Assembly: GCA_004325065.1 (NCBI GenBank)
Contig: PITI01000321.1
Coordinates: 1-14,553, forward strand
Origin: Hamiltosporidium magnivora
Lineage: Eukaryota; Microsporidia; Dubosqiidae
Direction: 5' to 3'
Length of the DNA stretch: 14,553 nt
Of the stretch, positions 40-14,553 are shown one piece after another. The translations under genes and the position numbers were made by a program. Under the pieces are notes generated by a model. The model saw only the letters and a list, made by a program, of their open reading frames with translations. It did no database searches and was not told where the DNA came from. Each line of letters begins with the position of its first letter. Position 1 is the stretch's first letter.

Positions 40-2538
40 TCACTTCTTTGTTTTTTTTACCTCTTTTTTACTTTTTGAAGAGTCAATTACTTTGTTTTTA
101 TTATCATCTGATACTTTCTTTTTCTCTTTTCCTGTAGAAGCAGTCTTTTTACTTTCTGACTTTGCTTTTTCATTTTTATGTTCACCAGCTTTCTTTGCCT
201 CCTTTTTTGTAGGATCTACTTTCTTGACAGGTACAGATACAACTTCTGCTACTTCTAATGTAACTTTTTCAATTACTGGTCCTTCTTTTTTATTTTTCTT
301 TTCTGTTGTAGTAGATTTAACATTTTTAGGTTCTTTAGTAGGTTCGTTTGACTTTTTCTTTGTTTCTTTTACAGGTTTAGATTTGACATTCTTAGTTTCT
401 TCTTCTGTTTTTGTATTTAATTCATTGACTTCCTTTTTAGATGAAGATTTTGCTTTTTTAGAATCTTTATTTTCATCAGTAGATTTCGCCTTTTTAGATG
501 TCTTGGTGGTTTCGTTGGATTTTTTCTTCGATTCTTTGTTTTCGTCCTCTTTTTTTTCTTCTACTAAATTTTGTTTCAATTCTTTCTTTTCCTTTTTTAC
601 TGTATTTGAGGCATTTGTTTTTTCCTTTTTACCACCTTTCTTTGTAATAGACTTACTTGTTTCTACAGTTTCATCTGTCTTAATATCACCTTCCACCTTT
701 TTATCATCAATTTTCTTTTTATTAGATTTACCCTTTTCTACACCTTTTGTTTTCCTTTCCATAGGGTCAAATAAAATTTCATTATTTAAATTAGACCCTT
801 CTTTATTAAAGAGTAAATTTGAATTTTCTAAAAATAAAGAATTTTTTTTATCTTTTTTATCTGTAATTTCTCTATCTTTTTTAATCTTCTTACTTTCTCT
901 GTTTTCTTTACTTTTTTTATTTTCTTCAATTTTTTCATCTTCTTTGATTTTTTTATTTTCTTTATTACCTCTGTCTTCTTTACTTTTTTTATTTTCTTTA
1001 ATTTTTTTACTTTCTTTAATTTTTTTATTTTCTTTATTACCTCTGTCTTCTTTACTTTTTTTACTTTCCTTGTTTACTATGTCTTCTTCACTTTTTTTAT
1101 TTTCTTTCGATTCTTTATTTTCTTTACTCCTCTTGCTTTCGTTAATTACTATGTCTTCTTTACTCTTCTTATTCTTCTTTTCCTCCTTGCTTTTTTCATC
1201 TTCTTTACTTTTTTTTAATTTTGATTTTTCTTTGTCTTCTTTATATTTTAACTTCTTGGAATTTTTTTTTGAATTTATTTTTTCATTTTTTATTTTGTCA
1301 AAGACTCTTTTGAGAACAATATCGGTGTTTTCCACTCGAATCCCTCCTTTAATATTTTTGACACGATCTTCTACCATTTTGAGTAGTGATTTTCCATATT
1401 CGTTAGTTTTTTCTTCGCTAAAATAATCAATTCTGGAGGCAATAGAGCATTTTGAAGCAATAAATCTACAGAGTTTTCCTTTATCATCAGAATTTACTTG
1501 ACTTACACCTGGTGCTTGGTATATAAATCCATATTTTGGTGTACTCGATTTTGCTTTAAGTGCTCTAAAAAGTGCCTTTTCTGCTCCAAGAACTTGTAAA
1601 GTTGAACTTGGGCATTTTGCCAAATTTAAAAGACTACCTGCAGTTGCAATTAACTTTGCAGAAAGTTTATTTCCCAAAAGTGCCAATAAATTTGGAGCAA
1701 TCTGTGTAAGTTTTTCTATCAAATAATTATTTAAATTTTCTGCCGTTTTCTGTTTTTCAATTATAATTTTATTTATGCGAGAAATATTTTTTAAATCATA
1801 AATAAAAAGTACCGAACCAACAGAAATCATATAAGAATTTAAAATATTTTCCACAAATAAATTATCTTTGATATTTTTTAAAAGTTCATTTTTTAATTCT
1901 TCATAATAAATAGATTTTTTATTAAAATTTAATTCATTTAAATTTACAGAAGAAGATTTTAGTTCTTCTTCTTTATTTATATAAAACTCAATAAAAATAT
2001 TTAAAATTTTACAATAATCGTTATTGTTATCACAGATGTTTGACAATTCTGGAAAGAAATTACTTGTAAGTTCTTTAAGTCGAATTATATATTTTGAAAT
2101 GTCTTTATCTAATTCTTCTAAAACTAAATAACTTTGAATTACAAAATTGTCTTCTTTTTTTGTGTCATATTCTATCTTGTCACGAGAATATTTATGTGAC
2201 AAAGATAATATTGATTGGTTTATGTCTGTCTGTTTTTCTTTGAGTAATTTGATTTGATTTAATCGAATGTTTCTCATTATGTCGTTGTTTGATTTTACTG
2301 AAATTTTTTCTTTACTCAAAGCAGAATGTAAAGATTTGTCACAAATAAGTGATTTTACTTTGTGAAGAGATAAAAATGATAAAAGTTCTGAACTGACTTG
2401 TCCTTGGGACAACAAATGTTGGTTTTCTAGACTTTGTGCGGGTGAAAGTGGATAAAACGAATGTAGGAATAAATTCGAGTCTTCATTTATCTTTATTAAT
2501 GCAAAGCCCATAGAATTTTCAAATAGTATCAAATCCAT
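40..2538 (-). CDS. NOP56: NOP56-like box C/D snoRNP core protein with greatly extended Lys/Glu-rich tail
   Basis: The 832-residue product is a core protein of box C/D snoRNPs. With NOP58, fibrillarin and SNU13 it supports 2'-O-methylation and processing of pre-rRNA in the nucleolus. Residues 1-65 resemble the NOP5/56/58 N-terminal domain (start MDLILFENSMGFAL). Residues 113-165 carry the family segment LSHKYSRDK followed by LDKDI and FFPEL. The Nop RNP-binding domain follows, with APNLLALLG near 281-289, GSLLNLAKCPSSTLQ near 301-315, GAEKALFRALK at 318-328 and TPKYG at 333-337. The segment SKCSIASRIDYFSE at 362-375 is typical of NOP56 rather than NOP58, which favours this paralogue. From about residue 417 to the end the protein is almost all K, E, S, N, D and T. 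Yeast NOP56 is about 500 residues, so this tail is several times the usual length. The start is supported by family alignment from residue 1 and by CCCC one base before the ATG. A long open frame on the opposite strand over the tail is only a shadow of its biased composition. Confidence 0.93.
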   Translation of the reverse strand: MDLILFENSMGFALIKINEDSNLFLHSFYPLSPAQSLENQHLLSQGQVSSELLSFLSLHKVKSLICDKSLHSALSKEKISVKSNNDIMRNIRLNQIKLLKEKQTDINQSILSLSHKYSRDKIEYDTKKEDNFVIQSYLVLEELDKDISKYIIRLKELTSNFFPELSNICDNNNDYCKILNIFIEFYINKEEELKSSSVNLNELNFNKKSIYYEELKNELLKNIKDNLFVENILNSYMISVGSVLFIYDLKNISRINKIIIEKQKTAENLNNYLIEKLTQIAPNLLALLGNKLSAKLIATAGSLLNLAKCPSSTLQVLGAEKALFRALKAKSSTPKYGFIYQAPGVSQVNSDDKGKLCRFIASKCSIASRIDYFSEEKTNEYGKSLLKMVEDRVKNIKGGIRVENTDIVLKRVFDKIKNEKINSKKNSKKLKYKEDKEKSKLKKSKEDEKSKEEKKNKKSKEDIVINESKRSKENKESKENKKSEEDIVNKESKKSKEDRGNKENKKIKESKKIKENKKSKEDRGNKENKKIKEDEKIEENKKSKENRESKKIKKDREITDKKDKKNSLFLENSNLLFNKEGSNLNNEILFDPMERKTKGVEKGKSNKKKIDDKKVEGDIKTDETVETSKSITKKGGKKEKTNASNTVKKEKKELKQNLVEEKKEDENKESKKKSNETTKTSKKAKSTDENKDSKKAKSSSKKEVNELNTKTEEETKNVKSKPVKETKKKSNEPTKEPKNVKSTTTEKKNKKEGPVIEKVTLEVAEVVSVPVKKVDPTKKEAKKAGEHKNEKAKSESKKTASTGKEKKKVSDDNKNKVIDSSKSKKEVKKTKK
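940..1062 (-). repeat. Duplicated coding repeat inside the NOP56 tail
   Basis: Residues 493-509 and 517-533 are the identical 17-residue string KKSKEDRGNKENKKIKE, offset by 24 residues (72 bases). The DNA copies are 1012-1062 and 940-990. Looser versions of the same K-S-K-E-D theme extend on both sides (for example EDIV at 461-464 and 485-488). This points to expansion of the tail by in-frame tandem duplication rather than fusion to another domain. Confidence 0.85.
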
Positions 2539-2739: not shown

Positions 2740-3500
2740 TAGATTTTATGTGAGATGAAGGAAGGAAGGATGTCTACAAAAGAAACTTTCTGCATGGCAA
2801 TGAGTGTGTCAAACTGGTATGAGGTCATTGTTAAGATTCTTGGTGGGAATAAAACCAAACAATATTTTCAGTTATCTTATGGAAGTTGCATGAGTAGGAG
2901 AGGTCTACGAAATGGTGAAACTTTTTCTAGCAATTTATTTGTAGTTTTTTATGTAACCAGATTGCAGACCGCAGCTGAACATGTAGGTAATTGCCATGTA
3001 AAAGCATGGAAACCCAGGCTCGCTCACTCGGGTTAGAAGACTTAGCGCCTGGGAGATATAAAAATAAAACCCTTTAAAGCCAGGAGAGCTAAGTAGCAGG
3101 TTATACCTGTTGGTATGACATTGCACTGTCTAGGTGGACCCCATGTAAATCTCTGAAATATATCTTAGCTAGAAGTTTATTAGGTTTAGAAAGTGTAGAG
3201 TAAGTGGGAATGCTGCATAGTCTTAAGGGAGACCGCGAGGCTTCGATCACATTACATGCAACAGACGTTAACGAACTCCGGGTAACTGCCTCGCCTATTC
3301 ATTGAATTCTACACACCTGGTAGATGTAAAACATCGAGATCTAGGTATCGCAGGGGGTACTGATGGACTTTTGGATAGCAGTTATTTATATTAAACTAGA
3401 ACTGCGTTAATGTCATCAAAACAAATATAACACTTGCTAGTGTTTTGAAAAGATAAGATATTTTCAAATTAATGGAGATATATAATTTTAGACTAAACGC
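2740..3500 (+). repeat. Dispersed GC-richer element, copy A (youngest-looking, near complete)
   Basis: This block is clearly richer in G and C than its surroundings; 3001-3060 has 31 G or C in 60. It aligns along most of its length with 11195-11900 (copy B), and its end aligns closely with the reverse complement of 14461-14553 (copy C). Several stems are visible: CCATG 2994-2998 with CATGG 3005-3009; CCCAGGC 3013-3019 with GCCTGGG 3047-3053; CAGG 3097-3100 with CCTG 3106-3109; GCGAGGC 3235-3241 with GCCTCGC 3288-3294; and GATG 3323-3326 with CATC 3332-3335, inside a second helix 3315-3320/3341-3346. A 93-codon frame at 2755-3036 has no recognisable product, and its ATG is GTG in copy B, so I do not call it a gene. 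Ends are uncertain by some tens of bases. It could be a solo LTR, a SINE-like or MITE-like element, or a multicopy noncoding RNA. Confidence 0.75.
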
Positions 3501-6761: not shown

Positions 6762-9133
6762 ATGAAAATTTTAATTCGTTCATTGCAAAAAAATATTATG
6801 AATGCTATATTTTTAAACACTTGGATTTTTGTTTTTTATATATTATTTATATCAATGAATATGGTTTTTTCTCATACTTTTAGATATGTTTTAAAATAAA
6901 ATGAAAATAATGAAATTCTATTCTTTCGAGAAGAACAAAAAAACCAACTGGCTGATAAAGAAACATGTGAGGAGCATAGATTATCTCTATTATCGGAGCT
7001 TAATCTTGAACCAAATTGTAATCAAAGACATGTATTTACATATAAAAAAGGAAATTTTATTAATTTCGATCTTTGAACCAAATTTTACAATCAAATACAA
7101 ACGAAAATAGCCAACAATGTGGAATTATAGAATCTGATTTTGAATTATCTTATTTTTTAAAGTTATCTAAAGATATATTAGAAATATCAGATAATCTAAA
7201 CAATTTTAAATTCAAATGTATGCTGACAGTTTTAAAATGTTTGAAAGCTGTAAAACATAAAAATAATGTTAAACTTTTACAAGCTTTTATTTACACAGAT
7301 CTTGTCTTTAAAGATTTATCTAATTCAAAAAATAACTGTATGAATTTGGAATAAATATTAAGTTCGGGATTTCTGCAAGATATTGATTATTATATTAAGA
7401 AAGATTTTATATCTGCTTTTTTGAATATTTTTATGATTCAATTTGAATTTCACAATGAGAATTTAATTTTGTTGGAAATATTAAAGAATCTTTTGAAATC
7501 TCACTTTTCAATATCATATTCTATATAAAAACGTATTAATTAATAATTATAAAGTATTTTATAACTTGGAGAACATATTGAAAAACCCCCGTAATTTATC
7601 TATTTTAGGAATTTTTTTAAAAGAAATAAATATAGAGTCTTTGATACTTAACTTTGAAAATAAAACCACTGAGTCGGTTATTGATTATAATTTCTTAATC
7701 CTTTCAATCGAAACATTTGAATCGATAACAATTTTCAATCTATAAGATCATTCTTCAAATTTTTATTAGAATTAAATTCCTCTATCGATAAAAATATTGA
7801 ATTTTTAAGTTTAAAAAATCTTTTAGTTCCAAAAGATACTTTAGCTTTATTATTGAAAAAAAAAGAAGAACTTGATGGTTTGGTGTTGCATGATGTTAAG
7901 ACTGTTGAAAATCTTAGTTTTATAGATGAATGTTTGAATTTAAACGGAAAAATAGATTATGTTGATTTTGAGAATGTTGATATTAGTGAGAATCGGTGGA
8001 AATTGTTTTTTGATGAATTCAAAGTCAGTAAGCTTATACTTAAACTTGGTTATGGTAGCCGAAACTTCATAGATGAATTTATTAAACTGAAATCAAATAT
8101 TTATATATCGTACTTGTCTTTGAATTTGAATTATTACAGTATGACAGAAGAATTTTGCAGGTCGTTAATGTTGTTTGAAGAATTGGAAACACAAAAACTT
8201 TATGATTATAAGGTTAAGGAATATACAGAGAGTTTTTTTATATATACTATCGAAAGAATGAAATATTTGGAAGATCTAATAATTCCTAGATCATCATATG
8301 AAGTCACAGATGATTTTAAGTTCTATTTGCAAAATTGGGAAATAAGAACATTTCATTTAGAGAATATTTAGTGACGAGACAAAGCTTCATCAAAATATTT
8401 TTTCGAAAATCAAAAATCGCTGACTGAAATCATTTTGATAAATTGTGAAATACAATATCTTGATATGGACAAAATTTTCGAGTTAGAAAAATTAGAAACA
8501 CTCAAAATAAATAATTGTTATGTTCATAATTTTCATTCCGACGATTTGATATGTTTCTCGTCGAGAAACCTTAAATATTTGGATTTAGAAGATAAGTCAG
8601 TTGATTTATCAGATAATTCTTACTTTCTAAGTGAATTAAATTGTTTGGAATATTTACGCGTATCTCATTCGATTCTACCCCTAGACCATCTAATAGACTT
8701 AAATAGAAAAAGCCACTTAACTTTAAAAGCTCTGATTTATGAACATATCCGACTAAATGTTTGGGATTTGATGGGTATAGAAAAACTAGAGGTTTTGGAG
8801 AAATTGTCGTTTCAATATTGCACGTTTTTAGATACTGATTCTTACAACTTTAAAAATTATTACAAATTTTTTCACTCTTTATAAATTTTAAATATTTCAG
8901 GGGCGAAGATAAGTCTGCAAGATGTGAAATATATAAAAAAATTTAAAAAACTAAAGAATATATCAATAGTATATAGCAATATGGAGCTTCGTTTAAATTC
9001 AAATTTGTTTCTATCGTTACCTTTAAACGAACTCTATATAACTGATCAAAATAAAAAATTATTAGATAAACAGAGAATTAAAGACTGTGTTTATGAGTAT
9101 AGCTCGTTGCGTGTAAGAATGTGGGATAGATAA
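6762..9133 (+). pseudogene. Broken gene for a secreted leucine-rich-repeat-like protein
   Basis: A start at 6762 gives a hydrophobic N-terminus suited to secretion (MNAIFLNTWIFVFYILFISM from residue 13) and then TAA at 6897. The same frame continues as protein-like sequence to TGA 7074. The reading then moves to frame 2 (about 7070-7525, crossing TAA 7352 and ending at TAA 7526), to frame 3 (about 7551-7742, containing ESLILNFENKTTE) and back to frame 2 from 7721 to 9130, interrupted by TAG-TGA at 8369 and TAA at 8882. The later part has spaced leucine-rich motifs such as LETLKINNC, LKYLDLED, LEYLRVSHS, LEKLSFQYC and LKNISIVYS, each about one LRR turn. Large families of secreted LRR-like proteins are known in several microsporidia. 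The lesions (at least five in-frame stops and two shifts) suggest a dead member. Because NOP56 and PDI have no internal stops, stop-codon reassignment is not a good explanation. Exact family unknown. Confidence 0.75.
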
Positions 9134-10015
9134 AATATTTGTATTTCATTTCTTTTTATATGCTACATTTTTTTTAAAAAAATAATAATTTTAAGAGTAA
9201 AAGTATAATTTACAATCCACAATTTGTGAAAAAAATATTTTATATTTGAATTTCATTCTAAAACATGTAAATTTTACTTAATTTTTCCATACCTTTTACC
9301 CAAAAAAATCATAATTCGATAAAATTTTAGCTAATAATTCATTTATTATGAAAAAATAATGCGATAGCGTTTATTGAAACTGAATTACTTCGTGTTATTC
9401 GGATAAATCTGTTGAAATTAAAAAAGACATGGGAAATAATAATTTGGTCAGTTATAAATACGCATCATGTTGCTATATAATCAATTAAAATATAACCCAG
9501 TTACTTGACAAGGCTATATACATCGAATTATCTAACATGAATGAGATATTTAATAAATTATAAGTCCTATTATTGGTTTTTATACATATAAATATACTTA
9601 AGTTTTAAATAAAAATGTCCTTTCACAATAATGTTTTCTTTACTTTGAAAGAAAAAAGCGGTAGGGAACGTAAATCCAAAGTGATCATCATCTAGATCTC
9701 AATTTTAAATTAAGCATTGAAATAATATTTCATGTAATGCCTTGAGATGGTTTTTTGTTATAGTGTGAGCTGCAACCTTGAGAAATCAACTAGTCATCAA
9801 CATGTTAAAAAAATATTATTAGGATTACACAACTAAAAATTATGAAATATTTCACTGGCTCTAACAATTCGATTTGAATAAAACGAAATTCCGTTAAAAA
9901 TTGCAAATATTAAATTTAATATTATAAAAGATGCTTAAAGCCTAATCCTTTATCAAATCTTTAAAAATGGTTAGTTTAAAAAAATGTATAGAAATCAAAA
10001 TACTCTACAAAATTA
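9134..10015. other. Gene-poor AT-rich stretch, nothing assignable
   Basis: No open frame of useful length and no familiar motif on either strand. A short stretch around 9615-9690 reads FHNNVFFTLKEKSGRERKSK before a stop and may be a remnant of a coding sequence, but I cannot place it. Confidence 0.6.
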
Positions 10016-10017
10016 CT

Positions 10018-10805
10018 AACTAACTCACGGCGCTACAGCCCTTGTAGAGCTCGGGCCTCTTTAACTATTTTCCTCTATTCTTCTTCATTGTGCATTAAGT
10101 CATTCCGTTGCAATATATTGAATTTCCTTAGATCGTTTTCCAACTCGTCTAGCCATCTTTTTCTCGGTCAACCTCGTTTTCTTTTGCCTTCAGGTGCAGA
10201 TCTAAAAATTTTTCTAACAGCTCTTTGGTCGAGATTCATATTACGTGTCCTAGCCATCTAAGTCGGCTCTGTCTCTTAATGGTAACCAAAGTTTGTTTTT
10301 TTCATAAAGCTAGTATATTTCTAGATTTTTTCTAATCCTCCACATGTTATTTCCAAATATAGGGCCGTATATTCTTTTCAGTATCTCTCTTACCCATATG
10401 TCTAGCAGGGTCTGGTTTCTTTTTGTTATCACTAGTGTTTGGGAGGCTTGCAGTACAAAAGGTCTAATATTCGTTCTATATATTTGCCTTTTAGTATTTC
10501 GATTTAACAGGTTTGACTTCAGTAAGCGGTGCAAAGCAAAGTAGGTCTTGTTGCCTGCTTTTATTCTTTTTTTAATCACAAGAACATTTATGTTATTCTC
10601 GTCCAGAAGAGATCCTAGGTATTTGAAGCTTAATACTCTTTGAAATATATATGAATCAATTTTTAACGAGTTCCTCGGGTATTCATCGAACGGGGAGCTG
10701 ATCATATATTTTGTTTTACTTTCATTTATTTTCAGTCCAGCTTATCCTGAAATCGCTGCTAATATTCTTAAAGTTGATTCTATATGTTCTTGTTTTCTTC
10801 TCTAA
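10018..10805 (-). pseudogene. 5'-truncated non-LTR (LINE) reverse transcriptase relic
   Basis: Reading on the minus strand from about 10805, the frame gives RRKQEHIESTLRILAAISG, a TAA, then AGLKINESKTKYM, matching the GL.IN..KTKYM block of LINE reverse transcriptases. The open part, 10705-10310, continues with FKYLGSLL, KRIKAGNKTYFALHRLLKS, NTKRQIYRTNIRPFV and REILKRIYGP, all standard for the thumb and C-terminal region. After the stop at 10310 a shifted frame gives SRLRWLGHVI near 10239-10268, and the end near 10020 reads KRPELYKGCSAV. The catalytic YADD region, the palm and any endonuclease are absent, so the copy is truncated at its 5' side, as is common after incomplete target-primed reverse transcription. 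It cannot move by itself. Clade not determined. Confidence 0.85.
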
Positions 10806-11194: not shown

Positions 11195-11900
11195 TAACTT
11201 TTTAATTATCTGAAAAATATTCATTATTATTAGTGAAGGAAGTCTCTACACTGAAAACCATATCTTTATATTGATTAGATAAAAGTTTTGGAAAAATAAT
11301 TGTCTGGATTTTTAAGGAAAAAAATCCAATATTTTTCGGTTGTTCCATAGAAATTCGTATATGAAGAAAAGAGGCTGAAAAATTGTGCAATTTTCTCAAT
11401 GAGTTAATTTTTGGGTCTTTATCTGACTTGATAGAAAACCAAGGTTTAATTTTTAACTAAAAATTTCGAAAAACATGTGGAATTGGATTTTCCCATGCTG
11501 GTTAGAAGAAAGTAGATCGGAAAGATATAAAGAAGGTTTAAAAAACCAGTAAAACTAAGTAGCAGATTATAACTGTTGGTATGACACTGTAAAGTTAATA
11601 ATTTCATTTAATTTGCCGAAAATATCTCAGAAGAAATTTTGATTCAATCGCAAAAACTATAATAAAAAATAATAGTTCAATTTATATTGTATCACATGTC
11701 GAGTTTCGATTTAAGAGCACATATTCTGAGATGAACAACAAAAACACTGAGCAACTTCACGCTTATAAAATGAGTTTCAACCATTTTTAAGATGTAAGTA
11801 TCTAAAGAATACCAAAAGATTTTTTGCATGTTAATTATCAATTTACAAAGAAGAACTACATTGGTGCTTTAAAAAATTATAAATTAACATCTTTCACATT
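11195..11900 (+). repeat. Dispersed element, copy B (old, AT-drifted)
   Basis: The order of matching blocks follows copy A. GTGAAGGAAGTCTCTACA near 11234 matches the A segment near 2754. CAATATTTTT near 11328 matches about 2870. AACATGTGGAATTG near 11472 matches about 2979. GGTTAGAAGA near 11501 matches 3030. CTAAGTAGCAGATTAT plus GTTGGTATGACA (11554-11586) match 3089-3120. GAGTTTCGAT near 11701 matches 3238-3247. AGATGTAAGTATCT near 11790 matches 3322-3335. GAACTACATT near 11851 matches the conserved end block near 3399. Many differences replace G or C in copy A with A or T, as expected for an unconstrained copy drifting toward the local composition. No frame is shared with copy A. Confidence 0.65.
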
Positions 11901-11904
11901 TTTT

Positions 11905-12220
11905 AAGAATATAGTATTTATAAAATGAATTTATTATCATTTAATATTTTTTTTGAATTTAACACAAAATATATTCATTATTTATAATTTTTAGTCAAAA
12001 CTCAAAGAATTTATTTCTATTTAAATAAATTATGAGTTTAAAATATTTTCAGCTTTTTCATACATTTTTTTGAACTAGTTCATAACTTTAAAAATTTTAT
12101 TTTCTAACAAATTTATTTTTTTAAACTTTTAATAATCTAATAAATACATAATTATTCTTATAAATTAATTTATTTACAAAAAATAATTAAAAATAATATT
12201 TTTTCTCAAGAAAGTTTCTT
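11905..12220. other. Extremely AT-rich spacer before the PDI upstream array
   Basis: This is almost pure A and T with no frames, no C-run signals and no clear repeat unit. It may be untranscribed spacer. Confidence 0.5.
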
Positions 12221-12221
12221 A

Positions 12222-12288
12222 TTTTTTAATTTTTAATTTATTAAGTTTTTAATTAAATTTTAAATTAAATAAAGGATTTTCTCAAGAA
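12222..12288 (+). repeat. Left inverted arm around the 86-bp array
   Basis: The reverse complement of this segment matches 12615-12680 with few differences, sharing for example GGAAAATCCTTTATTTAATT (one mismatch) and the block AATTAAAAACTTAATAAATT. With the tandem units between them, the two arms could form a long hairpin or cruciform. Such an arrangement is seen in MITE-like elements. Confidence 0.75.
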
Positions 12289-12618
12289 TAATTGAAAGAA
12301 TTTTTTAAAAGAGAGAAAAAAAATTTGTCCTGAATTTTACTTAAATAAATACATATTACAGTCCTTTTTAAGAATGATTGAAAGAATTATTTAAAAGAGA
12401 GAAAAAAATTTTGTTACTAAATTTTAATTAAAAAAATACATATTACGGTCCTTTTTAAGAATGATTGAAAGAATTATTTAAAAGAGAGAAAAAAATTTTG
12501 TCCTGAATTTTACTTAAATAAATAAATATTACGGTCCTTTTTAAGAATGATTGAAAGAATTATTTAAAAGAGAGAAAATTTTTAACCTAAAATTTTAATT
12601 AATCTAAAAGGTCCTTCT
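12284..12618 (+). repeat. Four-unit tandem array, unit about 86 bp
   Basis: Units begin at 12284, 12370, 12457 and 12543, each opening with AAGAATRATTGAAAGAATT followed by ...TTAAAAGAGAGAAAA, with a TACATATTACGGTCC-type end in the first three. Spacing is 86, 87 and 86 bases, and the fourth unit is shortened to about 76. The middle units are nearly identical, indicating recent duplication or homogenisation. The array ends about 90 bases before the PDI start and so lies in its upstream region. Confidence 0.9.
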
Positions 12619-12680
12619 TAGGAAAATCCTTTATTTAATTAAATCTTTTAATTAAAAACTTAATAAATTAAAAATTAATT
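12615..12680 (-). repeat. Right inverted arm around the 86-bp array
   Basis: This is the partner of 12222-12288 in inverted orientation. Its outer end lies only about 28 bases before the PDI ATG, so the PDI transcript start may lie inside or next to this arm. Confidence 0.75.
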
Positions 12681-12698
12681 ATAAATAAACAAAAAAAA

Positions 12699-14040: not shown

Positions 14041-14251
14041 AGGAATTATAAATTTGTTTTTAGTTTTCATATTTTTATGTAAAAATTATTTAATTTATTT
14101 TCATATGTTTATGTAAGAATTATAAATTTATTTTTAGTTTCCTTATTTTTATGTAAGAAATATAAATTTATTTTTAGTTTCCTTATTTTTATGTAAGAAT
14201 TATAAATTTATTTTTAGTTTCCTTATTTTTATGTAAGAATTATAAATTTAA
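14041..14251 (+). repeat. 40-bp tandem array just downstream of the PDI stop
   Basis: Three near-identical 40-base units begin at 14113, 14153 and 14193 (GTAAGAATTATAAATTTATT then TTTAGTTTCCTTATTTTTAT). A partial unit follows at 14233, and two older diverged units precede them from about 14041 and 14079. The array starts about 20 bases after the stop codon and so probably lies in the 3' untranslated region or terminator region of PDI. Confidence 0.9.
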
Positions 14252-14460
14252 TATCTAACTTTTCTTTCTTTGATAATTAAGATGCTATAGTTTATAATAA
14301 ATTATGTTATTTGTTATTAAGAATATTTAAATTCATAAAATTTTGTTTTAAAAATAACTTTCTTTACTTTATATTAAATTTAAATAAACTTTTTTTTTAA
14401 AATGATTTATTTATTTTTATATTCATATAGTTTACTTTCAGATGAATAATCTATTTATTT

Positions 14461-14553
14461 GGAAATATCACATCTTTTTACAATAGTGGCAAGTGTTATA
14501 TTTGTTTTCATGACATTAACGCAGTTCTAGGTTTAACATAAATAACTGCTACC
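14461..14553 (-). repeat. Dispersed element, copy C (partial, inverted, cut by window end)
   Basis: The reverse complement of 14489-14553 aligns with 3373-3437 of copy A over 66 columns with only four differences (two substitutions and two single-base gaps). Weaker similarity continues to about 14461. The rest of the element should lie beyond the right edge. It is in the opposite orientation to copies A and B. Confidence 0.9.

What the first reader, a model, noticed from the sequence alone, without database searches (positions are those of the whole stretch)
2740..3500. Undescribed-looking ~0.75-kb dispersed element with three copies in 15 kb
Copy A (2740-3500), copy B (11195-11900) and the end of copy C (14461-14553, inverted) are homologous but of very different ages. 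A and C differ at four of 66 aligned columns, while B has drifted toward AT. The element is GC-richer than the genome around it, has no frame shared between A and B, and matches no rRNA, tRNA, LTR retrotransposon coding region or transposase I recognise. Divergent copies so close together suggest a high-copy family with continuing amplification.
Basis: seen in the sequence. Interest (0 to 1): 0.75.

Follow-up and report, generated by a model that had tools for sequence, protein, structure and literature searches.

The report
Long SINE-like repeat in a microsporidian
The repeated 0.7-kb stretch is one of about two hundred scattered copies of a non-coding "hitch-hiker" element that seems to be copied through RNA by another element's enzyme, in the large genome of a parasite of water fleas.

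Summary
In the source genome (Hamiltosporidium magnivora, by a 100% protein match) copy A belongs to family F1: 728 nt, sharp ends, no stop-free run over 77 codons. 31-letter probes find 188, 184 and 227 sites (5', middle, 3'; reversed controls 0). No Rfam or tRNA match, no inverted-repeat or LTR-type ends. In the fetched sample 74 matches are full length and 6 cleanly 5'-truncated; pieces lacking the 3' end are contig-cut, F2 heads or decayed. Target duplications (score 10 or more) flank 20 of 59 full-length copies against 11 of 577 mismatched flank pairs; one of 6 truncated copies has a perfect 15-nt duplication. This fits LINE-type target-primed reverse transcription: F1 is a non-autonomous, SINE-like retroposon. 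A second family, F2 (about 225 nt, TAAG tail), shares F1's first 109 nt; its last 60 nt match the 3' end of a decayed LINE family here, and 48 nt of its body match that LINE's 5' side. F1's own partner LINE was not found; transcription was not testable. New member of a known kind; no characterised microsporidian SINE family turned up in my literature searches; the shared 5' head is of unknown origin.

The parts
2760..3473 (+). Copy A: full-length F1 retroposon (family positions 1-728)
   Evidence: Mapping; BLAST 87.8% over family positions 5-727; common ends in an alignment of 36 copies. No clear target-site duplication at this copy (score 5).
2760..2867 (+). 5' head module of copy A (family positions 1-109), the part shared with family F2
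   Evidence: F1/F2 majority sequences 88 of 109 identical; position mapping
3089..3122 (+). Core of copy A (family positions 333-366), the segment best kept in the very old copy B
   Evidence: 91% kept in copy B against 61% over the whole copy; position mapping. Conservation in other old copies is mostly an effect of how they were fetched.
11233..11930 (+). Copy B: ancient, A+T-drifted F1 relative; ends approximate
   Evidence: 61% over 521 columns, E 2e-31; mapping
14454..14553 (-). Copy C: 3' 100 nt of a less diverged F1 copy, cut by the contig end
   Evidence: 96% over family positions 628-727

Best explanation
F1 is a non-autonomous, non-coding, SINE-like retroposon. A full-length RNA of about 728 nt is made from a source copy (inferred). 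The reverse transcriptase/endonuclease of a LINE in the same cell uses the 3' end of that RNA and copies it into a nicked chromosomal site by target-primed reverse transcription (supported by the anatomy of the copies; the enzyme is inferred). Copies then decay towards A+T. The first 109 nt are a portable head that also fronts a second family, F2. F2 is that head plus a piece matching a LINE's 5' side plus that LINE's 3' end with (TAAG)n, which suggests how such elements are built here: a common head joined to a LINE-recognised tail. The head is most likely the transcription-start/promoter or RNA-stability module (inferred). Because F1 carries internal runs of 5, 5 and 6 T and no Pol III box above chance, RNA polymerase II is the likelier transcriber (inferred, about 65%).
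For: Common ends. Non-coding. Full length and 5' truncation only: 74 full-length matches, 6 clean 5' truncations, 2 old broken pieces, 5 cut by locus or contig ends; 20 further pieces without the 3' end, which I read as contig-end cuts, F2 heads, copy B or other decayed copies. Of the 13 copies fetched by the 3' probe, 10 run to within 12 nt of the 5' end, 2 are truncated and 1 is an old broken copy. Target duplications: score 10 or more in 20 of 59 full-length copies and 11 of 577 mismatched pairs; truncated copy L139 has a perfect 15-nt duplication, best of 50 mismatched pairs 8. F2: shared head, tail shared with a LINE family in three fetched copies, 5'-side piece shared with L144 (48 nt, 77%, E 1.4e-5). 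A LINE with an intact 914-aa frame and RT is present.
Against: 39 of 59 full-length copies, some little diverged, and 5 of 6 truncated copies show no clear duplication. No LINE sharing F1's 3' end was found, though only the fetched LINE loci were compared. Most copies are full length, more than is usual for LINEs (recalled); part of this is sampling, because copies found by the 5' or middle probe cannot be truncated beyond it. No transcript evidence was available. The F2-tail LINE family has RT matches below Pfam's cut-off and is decayed.
Confidence: 0.87

Rival explanations
1. F1 copies are retro-pseudogenes of a cellular structured RNA gene (as 7SL or snRNA pseudogenes are), not a self-perpetuating element lineage.
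For: Non-coding, higher in G+C than its surroundings, fixed 5' end, folds better than 20 of 20 shuffles, z -2.5. The copies fit a lasting source sequence.
Against: No Rfam family reached its threshold; no tRNA. The same head is joined to a different, LINE-derived body in F2, which is how mobile SINE families are built, not pseudogenes of one gene.
Confidence: 0.08
2. F1 is a DNA element (MITE or Helitron-like) or a solo LTR.
For: Short, non-coding and dispersed; MITEs, Helitrons and LTR elements are reported from microsporidia (passages).
Against: The ends GTGGAGGG and AAATAAAG are neither inverted repeats nor TG...CA (by inspection). Duplications vary in length and clean truncation is at the 5' side.
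Confidence: 0.03
3. F1 is a Pol III-transcribed canonical SINE whose boxes have become unrecognisable.
For: TGGCAATGAGTG in the head resembles an A box by eye; F2 is of ordinary SINE size with a LINE tail.
Against: A and B box matches are no better than shuffles (shuffles at least as good in 75-99% of cases for the A and B boxes); T runs of 5, 5 and 6 inside F1 would be expected to stop Pol III (the stop rule is recalled).
Confidence: 0.2

Closest known systems
EhSINE1/EhSINE2 of Entamoeba histolytica
   Same: Non-coding, about 550 bp, target-site duplications, 5' truncations (passages of PMC3716655); no Pol III RNA head and LINE partners (recalled).
   Different: No sequence comparison was made. 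EhSINEs have internal short repeats; F1 is longer, has a head shared with a second family, and no partner LINE identified.
RIME/ingi of trypanosomes (recalled, no call)
   Same: RIME is made of the two ends of its LINE; F2 likewise carries pieces matching the 5' side and the 3' end of a LINE.
   Different: F2's first 109 nt were not found in that LINE copy, and F1 shows no LINE-derived part.
Canonical tRNA-, 7SL- or 5S-derived SINEs (recalled)
   Same: Dispersed, non-coding, LINE-type insertion; F2 has a LINE-derived 3' tail with a tetranucleotide repeat.
   Different: No tRNA or Rfam match, no Pol III box above chance, T runs inside F1, 728 nt long.

Membership tests
SINE-like non-autonomous non-LTR retroposon (EhSINE/RIME kind) | No protein-coding frame of its own | tested here: met
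   Longest stop-free run 77 codons in six frames of the family sequence
SINE-like non-autonomous non-LTR retroposon (EhSINE/RIME kind) | Variable-length target-site duplications | tested here: met
   Score 10 or more in 20 of 59 copies against 11 of 577 mismatched pairs; met for the family, not detectable at 39 of 59 copies
SINE-like non-autonomous non-LTR retroposon (EhSINE/RIME kind) | Common 3' end with 5' truncations | tested here: met
   74 full length, 6 clean 5' truncations; L139 truncated with a 15-nt duplication
SINE-like non-autonomous non-LTR retroposon (EhSINE/RIME kind) | 3' end shared with a partner LINE | tested here: inconclusive
   F2: shared with L075, L143 and L144. F1: no match among fetched LINE loci
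SINE-like non-autonomous non-LTR retroposon (EhSINE/RIME kind) | Transcribed RNA of element length | not testable with these tools
   No RNA data held
Canonical SINE (Pol III) | Head derived from tRNA, 7SL or 5S RNA, with Pol III boxes | tested here: not met
   ARAGORN 0 in the window and 14 loci; no Rfam family at threshold; boxes not above shuffles
LTR retrotransposon / solo LTR | TG...CA ends and short fixed-length duplication | tested here: not met
   Ends GTGGAGGG...AAATAAAG; duplication length varies
MITE | Terminal inverted repeats | tested here: not met
   The two ends compared by inspection of the family sequence; no search program was run on it
Known structured RNA (rRNA, snRNA, RNase P, ribozyme and the like) | Match to an Rfam family at its threshold | tested here: not met
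   Only sub-threshold matches

The most novel reading that the evidence does not exclude
The 109-nt head is a new kind of portable SINE head: a transcription-start or RNA-protection module not drawn from tRNA, 7SL or 5S RNA, joined at least twice to different LINE-recognised bodies. Hamiltosporidium would then carry a SINE superfamily of its own that accounts for part of the large unclassified repeat fraction of these genomes.
Probability: 0.4. Interest if true: 0.6.

Novelty: new member of a known kind. Interest (0 to 1): 0.42.

Why it matters
Microsporidia are a model of genome reduction, yet Hamiltosporidium genomes are large and full of unclassified repeats: in H. tvaerminnensis 39.56% interspersed repeats, 25.45% of the genome in "other" (passage). 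Two related non-coding retroposon families with LINE-type insertion would give part of that fraction a mechanism and supply insertion markers for population work. The shared head makes a testable case of how SINE-like elements can arise without a Pol III RNA.

Tried and rejected
Conserved boxes as functional motifs: the middle and 3' boxes looked strongly kept in old copies, but most of that is ascertainment, because those copies were fetched with those probes. Ten old copies found by the middle probe keep the 3' box at 0.83 against a mean of 0.79; six found by the 3' probe keep the middle at 0.82 against 0.76. Only copy B, found without a probe, keeps 333-366 at 91% against 61%.

5S rRNA-like core: suggested itself by eye, but 15% of 300 shuffles score as well. 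Rejected.

LINE partner for F1: the L048/L054 match to F1 678-720 lies roughly 300 nt inside those LINEs and is A+T-rich (profile E 0.078 for L054). Judged chance. TTTAAATAAA near the ends of two LINE groups may be only a polyadenylation signal. The DNA before the isolated F1 3' end in L143 was examined as a possible partner LINE: one tblastn match at E 0.29 only, so I read it as a 76-nt truncated F1 copy.

F1 outside this genome: an exact 28-mer found 0 in viral contigs and 0 in bacterial/archaeal contigs. Other microsporidia are not held, so presence in H. tvaerminnensis or elsewhere was not tested.

Compensatory changes: by eye the F1 and F2 heads seemed to keep a second hairpin through changes; no pair count was run, so no claim is made.

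Dropped rows: exact duplicates (4, 8) and, L139 and L140 (truncated). F2 copies L018, L071 and L125 were left out of the duplication test.

Full report
What was checked. The window is contig C321 of a 10.74-Mb, 644-contig assembly. The window's PDI protein is 100% identical to one named Hamiltosporidium magnivora, a parasite of Daphnia (host of the genus seen). With 2740-3500 as query, 40 of 40 scored candidates (647 in the first look) matched at 81-100%. Thirty-six distinct copies aligned with flanks fall from about 90% column agreement to background within a few bases at both ends. This gives a 728-nt unit, F1, beginning GTGGAGGGAGGATAACCAC and ending TTTTAAATAAAG. Copy A (2760-3473) is 88-89% identical to it, copy C 96% over 100 nt, and copy B 61% by BLAST or 66% over mapped columns.

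Copy number. Probes of 31 nt with up to 3 mismatches found 188 sites at the 5' end, 184 in the middle and 227 at the 3' end; reversed probes found none. Of 33 mapped copies that came from the probe-free search, 88-94% pass each probe; of all 77 mapped copies 68-79%. The assembly therefore holds about 200 copies or more. Exact duplicates, perhaps allelic, inflate this a little (8 dropped).

How it moves. Three marks point to LINE-type target-primed reverse transcription. First, in the fetched DNA 74 deduplicated matches are full length and 6 are cleanly truncated at the 5' side (at family positions 210, 320, 387, 453, 615 and 652). Two more are old broken pieces, 5 are cut by locus or contig ends, and 20 pieces lack the 3' end; I read those 20 as contig-end cuts, F2 heads, copy B or other decayed copies. 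Sampling favours full-length copies, since those found by the 5' or middle probe cannot be truncated beyond it; of the 13 fetched by the 3' probe, 10 are full length or within 12 nt of it, 2 truncated, 1 old and broken. Second, flanking duplications scoring 10 or more occur in 20 of 59 full-length copies and in 11 of 577 mismatched pairs; the second copy lies 0-13 nt after the element's end. Third, truncated copy L139 has a perfect 15-nt duplication, while the best of 50 mismatched pairs scored 8. Against this, 39 of 59 full-length copies, some little diverged, and 5 of 6 truncated copies show no clear duplication, copy A among them. Ends that are neither inverted repeats nor TG...CA speak against MITEs and LTRs.

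The second family. Short matches to F1's first 48 nt led into a different sequence. A search with it gave 42 matches from 40 scored of 210 candidates. Eight copies align as F2, about 225 nt, most ending in (TAAG)n-like repeats. The F1 and F2 majority sequences agree at 88 of 109 positions from the 5' end and show no further significant BLAST match. F2's last 60 nt match the 3' end of a LINE family in three copies, L075, L144 and L143 (nhmmer E 3e-7, 1e-10 and 4e-5). A search with that LINE 3' region gave 16 hits: the query itself, 8 more long LINE copies ending at query 441-456, 6 short hits confined to query 396-455 (the one on C303 is a known F2 copy; the other five were not verified) and 1 further piece. 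F2 113-161 also matches the 5' side of the LINE in L144 (77% of 48 nt, E 1.4e-5); that this lies just before the LINE's endonuclease start is my reading of the frame. The head itself was not found in that LINE. Two of five F2 copies tested have duplications scoring 11 and 14, while mismatched pairs reached 9. This LINE family is decayed: its RT matches lie below Pfam's cut-off.

The machinery. The genome has 39 RT domain matches, not all LINEs. One LINE, L048, keeps a 914-aa frame with RT and a weak endonuclease match below Pfam's cut-off; L049 is a Ty3-type element and L058 telomerase. No LINE with F1's 3' end was found among the fetched loci, so F1's partner is inferred.

The RNA. F1 has no Rfam match at threshold, no tRNA, folds better than 20 of 20 shuffles (z -2.5), has no Pol III A or B box above chance, and holds T runs of 5, 5 and 6. 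I favour Pol II for the full-length RNA, as an inference.

What is known. De Albuquerque et al. (PMC7313128; parts 1 and 2 of 4 read, passages of the rest) report TE classes for 47 microsporidia. Parisot et al. (PMC4202319; passages) list 12 LINE, 5 LTR, 4 Helitron, 1 Mariner/Tc1 and 3 piggyBac families for H. tvaerminnensis, with no SINE column. Angst et al. (PMC10542269; passages) put 25.45% of that genome in "other" repeats. No word beginning with "sine" occurs in the text held of PMC7313128, PMC10542269, PMC4202319, PMC12449221, PMC12558613 or PMC13174016. A table for Nosema bombycis lists SINE at 0.18% with no subtype (PMC3614468; passage). Searches listed no paper whose title or abstract start describes a microsporidian SINE family (searches listed 15 of 33 and 15 of 21). 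So a characterised family appears unreported in this library; supplements and most subscription journals were not seen.

Verdict. F1 works like EhSINE- or RIME-type elements and fails the Pol III-head criterion of a canonical SINE. I file it as a SINE-like non-autonomous non-LTR retroposon, a new member of a known kind. The unexplained part is the shared head.

Noticed in passing
L123-L128; L018 about 1400-1663 (- strand); L071 3086-3314: Second SINE-like family, F2, about 225 nt with a (TAAG)n tail, sharing F1's 109-nt head and a LINE's 3' end.
   Followed up: yes
L065 429-2170: An old F1 copy appears to be split by a LINE fragment between family positions of about 308 and 402, a possible nested-insertion clock.
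   Followed up: no
window 10010-10750 (- strand): Looks like a decayed LINE 3' part with a GTTAGTTAG tail; the 131-aa frame 10310-10705 reads like the C-terminal part of a LINE reverse transcriptase by eye, but has no Pfam hit.
   Followed up: partly
window 7073-8884 (+ strand): Three neighbouring frames (93, 172 and 149 aa) that look like one decayed, leucine-rich gene; no Pfam hit.
   Followed up: no
window 43-2538 (- strand): Nop-domain (snoRNP, Nop58-like) protein of 832 aa with a very long lysine-rich C-terminal part encoded by internal repeats.
   Followed up: partly
window 12214-12690: Inverted repeat of 44 nt (89% complementary) around 3.4 tandem copies of an 86-bp unit, just before the PDI gene; possibly a small MITE-like element.
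   Followed up: no
window 14043-14250: 5.3 tandem copies of a 40-bp unit just after the PDI gene.
   Followed up: no
L058 (C509): Telomerase reverse transcriptase gene with an open frame of at least 806 aa.
   Followed up: no
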